This document shows, piece after piece, positions 5,124 through 53,030 of a DNA stretch of 64,000 nucleotides. Positions within the stretch are counted from its first letter, which is position 1; every line of letters begins with the position of its first letter. The stretch comes from Thermoleophilia bacterium. Its GTDB lineage: Bacteria; Actinomycetota; Thermoleophilia; RBG-16-64-13. The notes under the pieces were generated by a model. That model saw only the letters and a list, made by a program, of their open reading frames with translations, did not search any database and had not been told where the DNA came from. Position numbers and translations under genes: made by a program. Location of the stretch: the NCBI GenBank assembly GCA_027493445.1, contig JAOSKU010000001.1, forward strand, positions 496,001 through 560,000, in the 5' to 3' direction.

Positions 5124-5675
5124 GTGAGGTTCTCGCGGGTTGGCTCCAGACGACAGGAGGGGTCGTCACTTCTCGGCTCTCTGGTCGAGATCGTCGTCAT
5201 CGTGGGGGCGGCCTTCATCCTGGCCCTCCTCATCCAGCAGTTCGTTGTCAAGCCCTTCTACATCCCTTCGGAGTCCATGGAGGACACCCTGGTGAAGGGT
5301 GACCGGGTGCTGGTGAACCGCTTCATCTACCGGTTCTCCGAACCCGAGAGGGGCGACGTGGTCGTGTTCCATCCGCCCACCGCTCCCCAAGAGGATTACA
5401 TCAAGCGTATCGTGGCCGTGGGTGGGCAGACCGTGGCCGTGCACGACGGCAAGCTCTACGTCGACGGCGAGCCTCAGGACGAGCCGTACGTGAAGAACCC
5501 GAGCATAAACGGTACCTTCCCGGAAAGAGAGGTACCCGAGGGCTCCGTCTTCATGATGGGCGACAACCGCAATCAGAGCGGCGACAGCCGGGTCTTCGGG
5601 CCGGTAGAGGAGTCGAGGATCCTGGGCAAGGCCTTCATGGTGTACTGGCCGCCGGGGAAGATCGGCGGGTTGTAG
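5124..5675 (+). CDS. lepB: Type I signal peptidase
   Basis: Cleaves signal peptides from Sec and Tat substrates at the outer face of the membrane. The product is 183 aa, single-span type: one N-terminal transmembrane segment (about 20-40), then the nucleophile motif IPSESMEDTL (Ser near 51) and the general-base region YIKRIVAVGG (Lys near 90). Box E-like GDNRNQSGDSR follows. GTG start at 5124. It is placed between rplS and rnhB as in many Gram-positive genomes. Confidence 0.95.
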   Translation: MRFSRVGSRRQEGSSLLGSLVEIVVIVGAAFILALLIQQFVVKPFYIPSESMEDTLVKGDRVLVNRFIYRFSEPERGDVVVFHPPTAPQEDYIKRIVAVGGQTVAVHDGKLYVDGEPQDEPYVKNPSINGTFPEREVPEGSVFMMGDNRNQSGDSRVFGPVEESRILGKAFMVYWPPGKIGGL

Positions 5676-48045: not shown

Positions 48046-48133
48046 AAGATCGCAACGAAGCCGCGGTCGTTGGGGCCGCACTGACCGGCCCAATGCGGCG
48101 TCCTCGGTCGCGTCTGTAGCCTCGGGCTACGCC
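48043..48133. repeat. Dispersed repeat, partial copy proS-rimP
   Basis: A reverse-orientation half copy (GTTGAAAGATCGCAACGAAG, then the GACCGGCCCAATGCGGCGTC core) beginning at the proS stop. The far end is replaced by a short tandem repeat. Confidence 0.65.
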
Positions 48134-48142
48134 GGCGGTCAC

Positions 48143-48196
48143 GGGGCTTCCGGGGGCCACGGCGCTTCCGGGGGCCACGGCGCTTCCGGGGGCCAC
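48143..48196. repeat. 18-bp tandem repeat, three units
   Basis: Three units of GGCGCTTCCGGGGGCCAC (the first with GGGG in place of GGCG) in exact register. It lies between a broken dispersed repeat and the rimP promoter. No protein is likely encoded. Confidence 0.85.
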
Positions 48197-48224
48197 GGAC
48201 TATGCCTGCATATAGCTACGTTTG

Positions 48225-48254
48225 TTGTAGGTAGGATGAACCCTGTGTTATAAT
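48225..48254 (+). promoter_or_regulatory. Promoter of the rimP-nusA-infB operon
   Basis: Consensus TATAAT (48249-48254) with an extended -10 TG (TGTTATAAT) and a weak -35 TTGTAG (48225-48230) at 18-bp spacing. Initiation near 48262 would give a leader of about 75 nt to rimP, containing a terminator-like hairpin. Confidence 0.7.
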
Positions 48255-48292
48255 TCGGCCAAGCGAAATCAACTCAAAAGGAGCGTGCGGGG

Positions 48293-48326
48293 AAGTGGGT
48301 GCAACCGGGCCCACTTTTGTTTTGTT
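48293..48326 (+). terminator. Attenuator-like hairpin in rimP-nusA leader
   Basis: AAGTGGG (48293-48299), 10-nt loop, CCCACTT (48310-48316), then a U-rich tract (TTTTGTTTTGTT). This is an intrinsic-terminator shape placed between the promoter and rimP, so it could terminate transcription before an operon that encodes NusA, itself a termination factor. Confidence 0.6.
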
Positions 48327-48338
48327 CGGGGTCGAGTG

Positions 48339-48791
48339 GTGAAGCTGACCGAGACATGGGTGCAAGAGGTCGTCGATGACCAGCTGGAGAACGTCGAGAT
48401 CGTCGACGTCGAGGAAGCCGGCAGCCGGCGGCACCGGGTGGTCAGGATCTACGTGGACCATCCCGGCGGCGTGTCACACGAGGTGTGCGCACGCGTATCG
48501 ACGGCTGTCGGTGCCGCCCTCGACGAGCAGGGATTCGCCGACGGGCCGTACACCCTGGAGGTGAGCTCGCCCGGATTGGAAAGACCGCTCAAGAAGCCCG
48601 AGCACTTCCGCGCTCAGGTGGGCAAGAAGGTCTCGGTGAAGACCTTCGCACCCATCGACGGTCAGAAGGTCTGGAGAGGCATTCTGGCGGAGGTCGGTGA
48701 GGACAGCTTGGTCGTCGTGGACGCGGGGCGGCGGGTCGTGATCCGGTTGAGCGACATCGCGAAAGCCAACCTGGTATTCGAGTTCGAGTAG
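48339..48791 (+). CDS. rimP: Ribosome maturation factor RimP
   Basis: A 30S assembly factor of 150 aa: VRIYVDHPGGVSHEVCARVS and YTLEVSSPGLERPLKKPEHF are family hallmarks, followed by a C-terminal SH3-like domain (KVWRGILAEV). GTG 48339 is chosen; a GTG at 48285 would add 18 residues encoded by the attenuator hairpin. Followed by nusA. Confidence 0.94.
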   Translation: MKLTETWVQEVVDDQLENVEIVDVEEAGSRRHRVVRIYVDHPGGVSHEVCARVSTAVGAALDEQGFADGPYTLEVSSPGLERPLKKPEHFRAQVGKKVSVKTFAPIDGQKVWRGILAEVGEDSLVVVDAGRRVVIRLSDIAKANLVFEFE

Positions 48792-48801
48792 GGGAGAGGG
48801 A

Positions 48802-49983
48802 ATGAACAGAGAGACTATCGAGGCCCTCCGCCAGATCGAGAAGGAGAAGAGCATCCCCTTCGAGGTTCTGATCGAGGCACTCGAGGACGCCCTCCATTCC
48901 GCCTACAACAAGACCGGCACCCACGTGCCGTACTCCGAGGTGAAGATCGACCGCGAAACGGGTGAGATCCACGTTTTCGAGCTCATCTTTCCTCCGGGAA
49001 TGGAGCCCGATCTGGAGGACGAGGAGACCGAGGTCGACTACTCCATCGCGGAGCGCCGGGAGGTGACCCCCGAGGACTTCGGGCGCATCGCCGCTCAGAC
49101 GGCGAAGCAGGTGATCTATCAGCGCATCCGCGAAGCGGAGCAGGATCTCTTCTTCAAGGAGTACTCCACCCGCGTCGGCGAGATCGTCACGGGCATCGTG
49201 CAGCAGTCCGACAACCGGTATACCCTGGTGGACCTGGGCCGGGTCGAGGGCCTGCTGCCCAAGAGCGAGCAGGTGCCGATCGAACGCTACGAGCACGGCA
49301 TGCGCATCAAGGCGGTGATCAAGGAGGTCTCGCAGAACCCCAAAGGGCCGCCCATCATCCTGTCGCGGCGAAGCGAGGATCTCATCCGCCGGCTGTTCGA
49401 GCTCGAGGTGCCCGAGATCGCCGACGGCTTGGTGGAGATCGTGGGTGTGGCCCGCGAGCCCGGCTACCGCTCGAAGATCTCGGTGATCTCGCACAGCGAC
49501 GGGGTGGATCCAGTCGGCGCCTGCGTCGGACCGCGCGGCTCGCGCGTGCGCATGGTTGTCTCGGAGCTGCGGGGGGAGAAGATCGACATCATCCCCTACA
49601 ACGAGGAGCCGGCCCGCTTCGTGGCCAAGGCCCTGTCTCCGGCCCGGGTGCGGGAGGTGCTGCTCGATGACGAGGCTCGAGAAGCCACCGTGGTCGTACC
49701 CGACGATCAACTTTCGTTGGGCATCGGCAAGGACGGCCAGAATGCCCGCCTGGCCAACAAACTGACAGGCTGGAAGATTGACATCAGGTCCGAGACCGAG
49801 ATGGCCGAGGAAGAGGAGTCTTTCTCCGTCTCCGAAGCGGACGCTAAGGTCATGGACGGCCGGTGTCACGCGCTCACATCGGGCGGCAAGCGCTGCCCCA
49901 ACGCGGCGCTGCCCGGCAGCCTGTACTGCGGCATCGCGGGCCACCAGGCGCTGGCTGCTCTAGACAGGGCGGAAGGGGAGTAG
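48802..49983 (+). CDS. nusA: Transcription termination/antitermination factor NusA with Cys-rich tail
   Basis: NusA, 393 aa. The N-terminal RNA polymerase-binding domain (about 1-125) is followed by S1 (about 130-200, VGEIVTGIVQQSDNRYTLVDLG) and two KH domains (DPVGACVGPRGSRVRMVVSEL; LSLGIGKDGQNARLANKLTGW). After about residue 350 there is an unusual tail with CX9CX10CX4H (CHALTSGGKRC, then YCGIAGH), a likely small zinc motif instead of the acidic repeats of enterobacteria. ATG 48802 with GGGAGAGGG upstream. Confidence 0.96.
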   Translation: MNRETIEALRQIEKEKSIPFEVLIEALEDALHSAYNKTGTHVPYSEVKIDRETGEIHVFELIFPPGMEPDLEDEETEVDYSIAERREVTPEDFGRIAAQTAKQVIYQRIREAEQDLFFKEYSTRVGEIVTGIVQQSDNRYTLVDLGRVEGLLPKSEQVPIERYEHGMRIKAVIKEVSQNPKGPPIILSRRSEDLIRRLFELEVPEIADGLVEIVGVAREPGYRSKISVISHSDGVDPVGACVGPRGSRVRMVVSELRGEKIDIIPYNEEPARFVAKALSPARVREVLLDDEAREATVVVPDDQLSLGIGKDGQNARLANKLTGWKIDIRSETEMAEEEESFSVSEADAKVMDGRCHALTSGGKRCPNAALPGSLYCGIAGHQALAALDRAEGE

Positions 49984-49999: not shown

Positions 50000-50296
50000 A
50001 TGGGAGCCGGCCGCGCGACTCGAGTACCGCAGCGACGCTGTATTGCATGTGGCCGGCGCGGGCCTCAGGAGCAGTTCATCCGGGTGAAGCTCGATCCGAG
50101 CCGGTCTCCCGCTCGGGTGGTGGTGGACGTGGACGAGGCGCGTACGGGACGGGGCGCCTATCTGTGCCCCCGGCGGGTGTGCCTGGACCAGGCGACGCGC
50201 AGGCGGGCCTTCGCTCGGGCCTTCCGAAGGCCCGTGGCGGTAGAAGTAGAGGAGCTCCTCTCGAAGTTCGAGACGGAGGTGGACGAAGCAACGTGA
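50000..50296 (+). CDS. ylxR: YlxR family RNA-binding/nucleoid protein
   Basis: A 98-aa DUF448/YlxR protein. VPQRRCIACGRRGPQEQFIR carries the family Cys pair; GRGAYLCPRRVCLDQATRR is the second conserved block. YlxR proteins are reported to bind nucleic acid and modulate RNase P or transcription; the role here is inferred. It sits at its normal place between nusA and infB. Confidence 0.93.
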   Translation: MGAGRATRVPQRRCIACGRRGPQEQFIRVKLDPSRSPARVVVDVDEARTGRGAYLCPRRVCLDQATRRRAFARAFRRPVAVEVEELLSKFETEVDEAT

Positions 50297-50313: not shown

Positions 50314-53030
50314 GTGGCGAAGAGACGGATTTACGAGATAGCGAAGGAACGAGGAATCACGACCCAGGAGCTGGCTGAGAGGCTGCGGGCTGCCGGCGTC
50401 GAGGTCAAGAGCAACCTCTCGAGCGTCGAGGAGTCCGACGTCGACCGCCTGTTCGCCTCCGCTTCTACCGGCGTTGCCGAGGGAACGAAGGAGAAGAAAA
50501 AGAGCGCCCCCAGGAAGGCGGCGACGAAGCCGGTTGCCAGGGAGCAGCAGGCCGGGGAGGCGGCGGGTGACGGCCCTGCGGCCCAGCCCCACCCTGAAGC
50601 CGTTGCCGGCTCCCAGCCAACAGCCGGCAAGTCGGAGACTGAGGACGGGCGTCCCTCCAAGAAGAGCCAAGCCCCGAAGCCAGCCGTCGGACCGCGCATC
50701 GTCGCCACCGCGGAGGAGCTGCGGGCCAAGGAGCAGGCGGCTCGCGGCGCCCGCCCCGGGGGGGCCGCCCGCAAAGGCCGGCCCCGGCGCCCACGTCTGG
50801 AGGACCTGCCCACCGTGGTCGGCCCCGGCGTCCCGGTGCGCAAAGGGGTGAAGCCTTCGGGCACCGTACTACGCAAGGGCGAGGAACCCAAGCCGGCACC
50901 CAAGCCGGCGCCGCCCAAGCCGGCGGGTTCCGGCGGGCCCACGCCCGGTTCCCGGGGCAAGAGTCCGAGTGCGCCCCCCGGCCGGCCGCCGCGCAGCGCC
51001 GCTCCCAGCGGCGCGGCGCCGGCTCCTACGCCGGCCGCCGCTCCGGATGCGGGCGAGAGAACCGCTGCTCGGGGAGCGCCCAGGCGTCGGAGTGGGGGCG
51101 AGGCGACCCCGGGTGCAGCCCGCACCTGGAAGCCGTCGGACAGGCCTACCCGCCGCCGGGTGGTCATCGACTCGCAGGCCGGACGCAAGGGCAAGTCGTC
51201 CAGCCGGGACAGGAAGGGAACCCCGGTGGCCGAGGTCGAGCGGGCTCCCGTCAAGAAGAAGGCGGCCCCTGGCACCGAATCGCCGGTGACGATCCACAGC
51301 GGAGCCACCGTGAAGGACGTCTCCGAGGCCTTCGAGATCCCGGCGAGTGAGATCATCAAGACCATGATGAAGCTGGGCGAGATGGTCACCATCACACAGT
51401 CGCTGGCGGACGAAGCCGTTCTTATCATGGCCGAGGAGTTCGAGCGCCAGGTGGAGATCCAGCACGCCGAGGACGAGTCGGCCGAACCCACCTTCGTCGA
51501 CGACCCGGCCGACACGGTGGAGCGCGCCCCGGTGGTGACCATCATGGGGCACGTTGACCACGGCAAGACCTCTCTGCTCGACGCCATCCGGGAGACCGAG
51601 GTGGCCAAGGGGGAGGCCGGCGGGATCACCCAGCACATCGGCGCGTACCAGGTGCACCACAACGACCGGATGGTCACCTTTATCGACACGCCCGGCCACG
51701 AGGCCTTCACCGCCATGCGGGCCCGAGGGGCCAAGGTAACCGACATCGCCGTCATCGTGGTAGCGGCCAACGATGGGGTCATGCCTCAGACCGTCGAGGC
51801 CATCGACCACGCCAAGGCGGCCGAGGTGCCGATCGTGGTTGCCATCAACAAGATGGACCTCGAAGACGCCAACCCCGATCGAGTCATGCAGCAGCTCAGC
51901 GATCAGGGCCTGGTCCCCGAAGCCTGGGGGGTGACACCGTGATGGTGCAGGTGTCTGCCAAGCAACGTCTTAACCTCGAGGACCTCATGGACATGCTGCT
52001 GCTGGTGGCGGAGGTGCAGGAGCTAAAAGCCAACGCCAAGGCGCCGGCCAGCGGGGTGGTGATCGAATCGCAGCTGGACGTGGGCCGGGGGCCGGTGGCC
52101 ACTATGCTCATCCAGCGCGGAACCCTGCACGTGGGCGACGCCATCGTCAGCGGAGAGGCCTACGGCAAGGTCAAGGCCATGTTCGACTTCAAGAGCGAGG
52201 CCGCTGACGAAGCCGGCCCGGCCATGCCGGTGCAAATTCTGGGCTTCAACAGCGTGCCCATGGCCGGCGAGTTTGCCATGGCTGTCAAGGACGAGCGCGA
52301 GGCCCGACATCGGGCCGAGAGCCGCACCGCTCGTCTGCGGCAGGAGCAGCAGGCCAAGGGCGGAGCCGGGGCCACCGGGCTGGACGACTTCTACCGCCGT
52401 CTCAAGGAAGGCGCGGTCAAGGAGCTTGCCCTGATCATCAAGGGCGACGTGGGCGGCTCGGTGGAAGCTCTGGAAGAGGCCTTGAGCAACATCAGCCATC
52501 CCGAGGTCAAGGTTTCGGTCATCCACTCGGGCGTCGGTGGGGTGAACGAATCCGACGTGATGCTGGCGTCCACGTCGGACGCGGTCATCATCGCGTTCAA
52601 TGTGCGTCCCTCGGTCGCCGCGAAGGCACTGGCCGAGAGCGAAGGGGTCGACATCCGGACCTACCGGGTTATCTACAAGGCCATCGAGGACGTGCAGGCG
52701 GCGCTGGCCGGCATGCTCGAACCGGAGTATGTGGAGCAGGAGCTGGGTACGGCCGAAGTGAGGCAGATCTTCCGCGCTTCGCGGGTCGGCACCATCGCCG
52801 GGTGCTACGTCCAGACCGGCAAGCTTACCCGCTCGGCCAAGATCCGCGTCGTGCGGAATGGGCAGATCATCCACGAGGGCACCATCGATTCGCTGAAGCG
52901 GTTCAACGACGATGTGCGCGAGGTCCTCGCCGGCTACGAGTGTGGTTTGCACCTTGACGGTTTCGACGACATCAAGGAAGGCGACACCGTCGAGGCCTAC
53001 GAGATCAAGGAAGTTGCCCGGACCGAGTAA
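50314..53030 (+). CDS. infB: Translation initiation factor IF-2, one frame break
   Basis: The initiator-tRNA GTPase, about 905 aa. An IF2 N-terminal helical domain ([20 protein letters not shown]) is followed by a long Ala/Pro/Lys-rich linker (about 55-320) and the G domain with [20 protein letters not shown] and NKMDL. Domains II-IV follow, ending [10 protein letters not shown]. The frame breaks at the G run 51926-51931: one additional G gives [15 protein letters not shown] and rejoins the downstream frame. GTG 50314. Almost certainly a functional gene with a lost base. Confidence 0.92.

What the first reader, a model, noticed from the sequence alone, without database searches (positions are those of the whole stretch)
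48225..48340. Attenuator in the leader of the operon that encodes NusA
A strong TATAAT promoter is followed by an intrinsic-terminator shape (AAGTGGG/CCCACTT and a U tract) before rimP-nusA-infB. NusA enhances hairpin-dependent termination, so a feedback loop on its own operon is a simple prediction.
Basis: partly seen in the sequence, partly recalled or inferred. Interest (0 to 1): 0.5.

Follow-up and report, generated by a model that had tools for sequence, protein, structure and literature searches.

The report
rimP-leader transcription attenuator before nusA
A small RNA hairpin and U-run just after the promoter of the operon for RimP, NusA and IF2 looks like a real, conserved premature stop signal, and it is one more case of a bacterial regulatory element described in 2010.

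Summary
An extended -10 (TGTTATAAT, 48246-48254) is followed about 40 nt later by a terminator hairpin (48291-48318) and an interrupted U-tract (TTTTGTTTTGTT), 20 nt before rimP. Alone, the hairpin is not beyond chance. Comparison decides: 17 of 17 family loci examined keep promoter and hairpin 32-42 nt apart, while the distance from proS varies from 2 to 200 nt. In the class, 98 of 106 usable rimP leaders have a terminator hairpin, against 13-14% of shuffles, with compensatory stem changes. A covariance model finds only this site in the 4.7-Mb genome, apart from its reverse complement at E 8.2.

This is the "rimP-leader" of Naville & Gautheret 2010, also present in Bacillota.

One caution: mycobacterial NusA is reported not to enhance intrinsic termination, while mycobacterial NusG does at poor U-tracts. 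The U-tract here is interrupted, so NusG may be the main or joint factor. New member of a known kind; low interest.

The parts
48246..48254 (+). extended -10 promoter element TGTTATAAT; weak -35-like TTGTAG at 48225-48230
   Evidence: TGnTATA[AC]T upstream of the hairpin in 17 of 17 family loci; TGnTAnnnT 20-60 nt upstream of the hairpin in 71 of 83 other class leaders against 3 of 83 in a control stretch (at least 5 of 6 of TATAAT: 40 of 83 against 7)
48261..48290 (+). leader before the hairpin (transcription start about 48261, inferred); no conserved anti-terminator seen
   Evidence: mean z of the fold before the 3' arm is +0.42 over 17 family leaders
48291..48318 (+). terminator hairpin, core AAGTGGG/CCCACTT
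48315..48326 (+). U-tract TTTTGTTTTGTT with G interruptions; predicted release at about 48323-48326 (inferred)
   Evidence: tract interrupted in 16 of 17 family loci, L011 being the exception
48339..48791 (+). rimP, ribosome maturation factor, start GTG 48339
   Evidence: (best E 4e-32, 111.5 bits, below that model's curated cut-off of 162), for the start
48802..49983 (+). nusA
   Evidence: TIGR01953, 377.5 bits, cut-off 253.4
50000..50296 (+). ylxR/rnpM-like gene of the operon
   Evidence: 56.3 bits, below the curated cut-off of 80
50314..53030 (+). infB (IF-2), read as two overlapping frames
   Evidence: only the first frame was scanned (325 bits, below the cut-off of 424.4)

Best explanation
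The leader is a transcription attenuator of the rimP-leader kind. RNA polymerase starts at about 48261 and makes about 63-66 nt. The hairpin 48291-48318 then forms while RNAP sits on an interrupted U-tract, so a fraction of transcripts ends at about 48323-48326 and the rest runs on into rimP-nusA-infB-rbfA. Because the stem foot is weak (A-U, G-U) and the U-tract is broken by G, the fraction depends on general elongation factors. The most likely input is the operon's own product NusA acting together with NusG, giving negative feedback. No riboswitch-like sensor, leader peptide or anti-terminator was found. Shown: anatomy, conservation, specificity to rimP leaders. Inferred: start site, termination, factor dependence. 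Not shown: NusA feedback in this organism. I put about 0.85 on an attenuator and about 0.5 on NusA being the main regulating factor.
For: Promoter and hairpin 32-42 nt apart in 17 of 17 family loci while the proS stop lies 2 to 200 nt before the promoter. 98 of 106 class leaders have the hairpin, against 0.13-0.14 in shuffles. Changes on both sides in 3 of 9 pairs and 98.8% of cells paired; 0 of 500 shuffles reach the observed value for four of the five measures, 21 of 500 for the fifth (the alignment is fitted to the model and so leans its way). One match per genome in each of the 44 genomes with a match, of 200 class genomes searched at E 0.01 with strict filters. In the own genome only this site and its reverse complement, E 8.2 (150 of 1259 first-look candidates were scored). 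The same element in Bacillota and other Actinomycetota. Published rimP-leader and NusA autoregulation. Weak stem foot and distal U-tract interruption are described for NusG- and NusA-dependent terminators of B. subtilis.
Against: No transcript data. The leader as a whole folds no better than shuffles. Mycobacterial NusA is reported not to enhance intrinsic termination, and M. tuberculosis NusA or NusG did not substantially change full-length synthesis in vitro on the template tested. Six named leaders keep the hairpin with a short or broken T-tract, which is not what a pure terminator would do. Three of 106 class leaders (L037, L048, L098) show no such hairpin.
Confidence: 0.55

Rival explanations
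1. NusG, not NusA, is the factor that sets termination at this leader. The attenuator then reads NusG (or the NusG-to-RNAP ratio), with NusA only a downstream product.
For: Mycobacterial NusG strongly stimulates intrinsic termination at suboptimal U-tails while mycobacterial NusA does not (review statement). The tail TTTTGTTTT holds the TTNTTT motif and the stem foot is A-U/G-U, features given for NusG-dependent terminators in B. subtilis. The tract is interrupted in 16 of 17 family loci.
Against: The element sits before nusA in several phyla. In B. subtilis NusA-stimulated termination in the leader is the stated mechanism. Mycobacteria belong to another class than the one inferred for this window.
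Confidence: 0.25
2. A constitutive partial terminator that sets the basal ratio of operon to short RNA, with no feedback from any factor.
For: No sensor or conserved anti-terminator is seen. Nothing here shows a response.
Against: The same hairpin core across phyla and autoregulation stated or suggested elsewhere make a fixed set-point less likely.
Confidence: 0.12
3. It is the 3' terminator of the upstream proS gene, and the promoter match is incidental.
For: It lies downstream of proS on the same strand and would also stop proS read-through.
Against: The hairpin keeps its distance from the -10 (32-42 nt) in 17 of 17 loci but not from proS: the proS stop lies 2 to 200 nt before the -10.
Confidence: 0.04
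4. The hairpin acts on RNA stability or translation (processing site, 5' protective stem, binding site for RimP or another protein) rather than on termination.
For: Six named leaders keep GTGGG...CCCAC with a short or broken T-tract. Within the family the core hardly varies at all.
Against: 98 of 106 class leaders pass a filter that requires at least 5 T in 8 after the stem. The start region of rimP lies outside the stem.
Confidence: 0.06

Closest known systems
rimP-leader (Naville & Gautheret 2010, PMC2965389; section 7 and passages read)
   Same: Same place (leader of rimP-nusA-infB), GGG...CCC terminator stem with U-tract, 20 nt before the start codon (published range 4-130), no visible anti-terminator.
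   Different: The pair next to GGG/CCC is U-G here, not C-G; the loop is 8 nt; the U-tract is interrupted. In part of family f3 of this class the core itself is swapped (GTCGG/CCGAC or GCCGG/CCGGC) with pairing kept.
B. subtilis NusA autoregulation by attenuation (review PMC12288461, passage, citing Mondal 2016, which is not held)
   Same: Intrinsic terminator in the leader of the nusA operon.
   Different: There NusA dependence is stated as established; here untested, and actinobacterial NusA may differ.
Rfam RF01770 rimP (gammaproteobacterial leader)
   Same: Leader of the same operon. E. coli has ACTGGGCTTTAGGCCC followed by seven T, 17 nt before its annotated rimP start (read by eye; the pattern in the script did not pick it).
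   Different: The model (102 positions) matches neither the window nor any of 21 genomes searched.
S. agalactiae rimP operon leader (PMC4448216, passage)
   Same: Termination 31 nt after the start site at a predicted intrinsic terminator; the authors suggest NusA feedback.
   Different: There supported by RNA-seq; here by sequence only.

Membership tests
rimP-leader (Naville & Gautheret) | lies in the leader of a rimP-nusA-infB operon | tested here: met
rimP-leader (Naville & Gautheret) | terminator stem with GGGc(...)gCCC | tested here: met
   GGG 48297-48299 / CCC 48310-48312 with U-G in place of C-G; GGG and CCC in the arms of 87 of 98 class hairpins, against about 1% of shuffled leaders
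rimP-leader (Naville & Gautheret) | U-stretch after the stem, 4-130 nt before the start codon | tested here: met
   TTTTGTTTTGTT; 20 nt between stem end 48318 and GTG 48339
rimP-leader (Naville & Gautheret) | no visible anti-terminator (general form) | tested here: met
   mean z +0.42 over 17 leaders; the GTGGG bases are paired upstream slightly more often than in shuffles (3.4 against 2.9 of 5), without a common structure
Rfam RF01770 rimP | score over the gathering threshold | tested here: not met
   no RF01770 hit; 0 of 21 genomes; among 14 control genomes only E. coli rings
NusA-autoregulated attenuator | leader termination rises with NusA level | not testable with these tools
   needs Term-seq or in vitro transcription
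NusG-dependent intrinsic terminator | TTNTTT in the non-template strand, weak A-U/G-U stem foot, distal U-tract interruption | tested here: met
   sequence; features as given in PMC8060035 passages
NusG-dependent intrinsic terminator | termination depends on NusG | not testable with these tools
   needs in vitro transcription or a NusG-depleted strain
leader-peptide attenuator | conserved short ORF in the leader | tested here: not met
   the ORF from the GTG in the stem runs from 2 to at least 50 codons over 17 loci (reading was capped at 50) and in some loci runs into rimP

The most novel reading that the evidence does not exclude
In a high-GC actinobacterial class with no measurable excess of canonical U-tract terminators over chance, the nusA operon keeps a private, clean, slightly broken intrinsic terminator as a gauge of the cell's termination capacity, read by NusG (or NusG with NusA) rather than by NusA alone. 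Part of family f3 shows that the supposedly recognised GGG/CCC core can be swapped for CGG/CCG as long as it pairs, so the gauge would work by hairpin strength and U-tract, not by sequence-specific RNA binding.
Probability: 0.25. Interest if true: 0.45.

Novelty: new member of a known kind. Interest (0 to 1): 0.22.

Why it matters
It extends a known, very widespread attenuator to a little-studied actinobacterial class, with comparative evidence (promoter, hairpin, compensatory changes). It also sharpens an open point: which factor such a leader senses in a phylum where NusA has been reported, in mycobacteria, not to stimulate termination.

Tried and rejected
Leader peptide: the ORF from the GTG in the stem (15 codons in the window, overlapping the rimP start) is not conserved in length. 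Anti-terminator: pre-hairpin folds are no better than shuffles (mean z +0.42), though the GTGGG bases are paired slightly more often than in shuffles (3.4 against 2.9 of 5), with no common structure. Riboswitch or other Rfam family: no hit at gathering; the best weak hit is an sRNA on the other strand, E 0.38. Regulon of the same hairpin: model R1 finds in the own genome only this site and its reverse complement at E 8.2. The plain pattern GTGGGN{4,12}CCCACTT gave 6 matches, including the leader on both strands, against 10 for its reversed control, so it is not specific; the other 4 places were not followed.

"Only canonical terminator in the genome": a gapless-stem scan of 464 kb found only this one at 7 or more T of 9, while one shuffle gave 3. 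A variant with longer loops and longer stems found one other site in 400 kb, and the scan gave 0, 2, 2 and 0 sites in 100 kb each of four relatives. An energy-based scan of 864 kb found 31 against 34 in one shuffle (4 against 2 at 8 or more T), with a few clean ones elsewhere (L253, L265), against 27 to 15 (6 to 1) in 50 kb of E. coli. So I claim only that no genome-wide excess was seen, and the shuffles are single.

Row handling: of 113 relatives' genomes with nusA, 110 loci were used; G055, G086 and G104 (pieces at contig ends) were left out. G001, of the same genus and 64% complete, had no nusA match. rimP was found in 108 of 110; L068 and L106, with too little upstream sequence, were dropped, leaving 106. 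One of the 98 hits (L011) is not the true hairpin, which lies further upstream. In L025 and L026 the detector picked another hairpin although the GTGGG motif is also there. Of the 8 misses, L015, L034, L092 and L099 do show a paired GGG/CCC hairpin with a T-run that my filter missed, L071 has one with a poor T-tract, and L037, L048 and L098 show none. In one search the family set is 14, because L011, L015 and L016 were not in it. In the named set, rimP was found in 75 of 80 loci and one search counted all 75; two rows (L151, L166) had a coordinate error, and the corrected count is 56 of 73. Four of these 73 (L112, L113, L117, L118) have the contig lengths of class loci already counted. Alignment A2 holds two reverse-strand hits among its 57 rows.

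Full report
What is there. The window holds proS (ending 48045), then a 293-nt gap, then rimP-nusA-ylxR/rnpM-infB-rbfA (RimP, the ylxR/rnpM-like protein and the first infB frame score below NCBIfam's curated cut-offs, with clear E-values). In the gap lie an extended -10 promoter TGTTATAAT (48246-48254, poor -35), a hairpin with core AAGTGGG/CCCACTT (48293-48316, extended by wobble pairs to 48291-48318) and the tail TTTTGTTTTGTT (48315-48326). The rimP start is best placed at GTG 48339, because L004, L006 and L007 have ATG at that codon.

Chance. Alone, the hairpin proves little: 7 terminator-like sites were found in 10 kb against 3.8 expected, and the whole leader folds no better than its shuffles (z -0.25). 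The test that counts is comparison.

Relatives. Of 119 relatives' genomes, 113 had nusA, and 110 loci were used. In the window's own family, 17 of 17 loci (own genome included) show TGnTATA[AC]T followed after 32-42 nt by AGTGGG[T]...CCC[AG]CTT. This includes L016, where my RimP search failed, and L011, where extra DNA separates hairpin and rimP. In the class, 98 of 106 usable leaders have a terminator hairpin in the 200 nt before rimP, against a fraction of 0.13 or 0.14 in dinucleotide shuffles, 12 of 105 in the stretch 200-400 nt upstream and 8 of 106 on the reverse strand. An extended -10 (TGnTAnnnT) lies 20-60 nt upstream of the hairpin in 14 of 14 family and 71 of 83 other leaders examined, against 1 and 3 in a control stretch; the stricter test, at least 5 of 6 letters of TATAAT, gives 14 of 14 and 40 of 83, against 0 and 7.

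Structure. Within the family and its nearest relatives the stem is almost invariant (16 sequences). Across 57 model matches (54 distinct), 98.8% of cells are paired and 3 of 9 pairs have changes on both sides; no shuffle of 500 reaches the observed value on four of five measures, and 21 do on the fifth (the alignment was fitted to the model, which favours it). Class hairpins carry GGG and CCC in 87 of 98 cases. Nine of the eleven exceptions are in one family, f3, where GTGGG/CCCAC has become GTCGG/CCGAC or GCCGG/CCGGC with pairing kept; other f3 members (L019, L020, L021, L023) keep GTGGG/CCCAC.

Specificity. A covariance model from 16 leaders finds in the 4.7-Mb genome this place (E 5.8e-14) and its reverse complement (E 8.2), and nothing else (150 of 1259 first-look candidates were scored). 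In 200 class genomes, each of the 44 with a match at E 0.01 has exactly one (strict filters, so 156 without a match say little). This looks like a dedicated element, not a common terminator.

Mechanism. The hairpin keeps its distance from the promoter, not from proS: the proS stop lies 2 to 200 nt before the -10 in the 17 family loci. So it belongs to the rimP leader. No conserved leader peptide and no conserved anti-terminator (mean z +0.42) was found. The simplest machine is therefore a partial terminator whose strength is set by general factors. A weak stem foot and an interrupted U-tract, the latter in 16 of 17 family loci, are features given for NusG- and NusA-dependent terminators in B. 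subtilis (PMC8060035, passages).

What is known. [quoted passage not shown] A 2025 review (passages) states that B. subtilis NusA is autoregulated by NusA-stimulated termination in its leader. RNA-seq in S. agalactiae shows termination 31 nt after the start, and the authors suggest NusA feedback (passage). I found the same hairpin in named Bacillota and Actinomycetota (56 of 73 leaders, 51 with GGG/CCC, against 0.10 and 0.01 in shuffles; at least four of the 73 repeat class loci) and a shorter form in E. coli (read by eye). Rfam RF01770 covers the gammaproteobacterial form and does not match here.

Against the simple NusA reading. [quoted passage not shown] In vitro, M. tuberculosis NusA or NusG did not substantially change full-length synthesis on the template tested (passage). 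In six named leaders the hairpin is kept with a short or broken T-tract (L144, L147, L152, L155, L171, L174). So NusA feedback is plausible but unproven here, and NusG is a serious rival. For the cold-shock idea, one E. coli paper argues against Csp-mediated anti-termination of this operon (PMC6511841, passage).

Genome background. In 864 kb of the own genome, hairpins with 7 or more T of 9 are no more frequent than in one shuffle (31 against 34), while a 50-kb E. coli stretch shows 27 against 15. With a stricter gapless scan of 464 kb this leader was the only site, against 3 in one shuffle. Paucity of canonical terminators is already known for mycobacteria.

Verdict. Observation confirmed; attenuator well supported; NusA feedback partly supported; new member of a known kind. 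No paper on this leader in this class was among the titles listed by my searches. Three of these lists were capped (12 of 30, 10 of 14 and 10 of 65 papers shown), and only the held open-licence library is covered.

Noticed in passing
window 51926-51942: infB appears split into two overlapping frames (50314-51942 and 51939-53030) next to a run of six G; probably a sequencing or assembly error in an essential gene, not checked against reads or relatives.
   Followed up: partly
window 48132-48198: Three tandem copies, 18 nt apart, of a GC-rich unit between proS and the promoter, of no known role.
   Followed up: no
loci L006, L007, L018, upstream of the -10: An imperfect palindrome like GAAGTAT(A)GCTGCTTC about 20-40 nt upstream of the -10 in some family members; it may be a regulator site (by eye). 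Not clear in the window.
   Followed up: no
family f3 leaders L029-L033, L036, L045, L050, L107: The rimP-leader core GGG/CCC is replaced by CGG/CCG with pairing kept, against the published high conservation of that core.
   Followed up: partly
named loci L144, L147, L152, L155, L171, L174: rimP leaders that keep the GTGGG...CCCAC hairpin but have a short or broken T-tract.
   Followed up: no
L265 about position 5577 and L253 about position 607 (own genome): Two clean terminator hairpins in a genome without a measured excess of such sites; their neighbours were not looked at.
   Followed up: no
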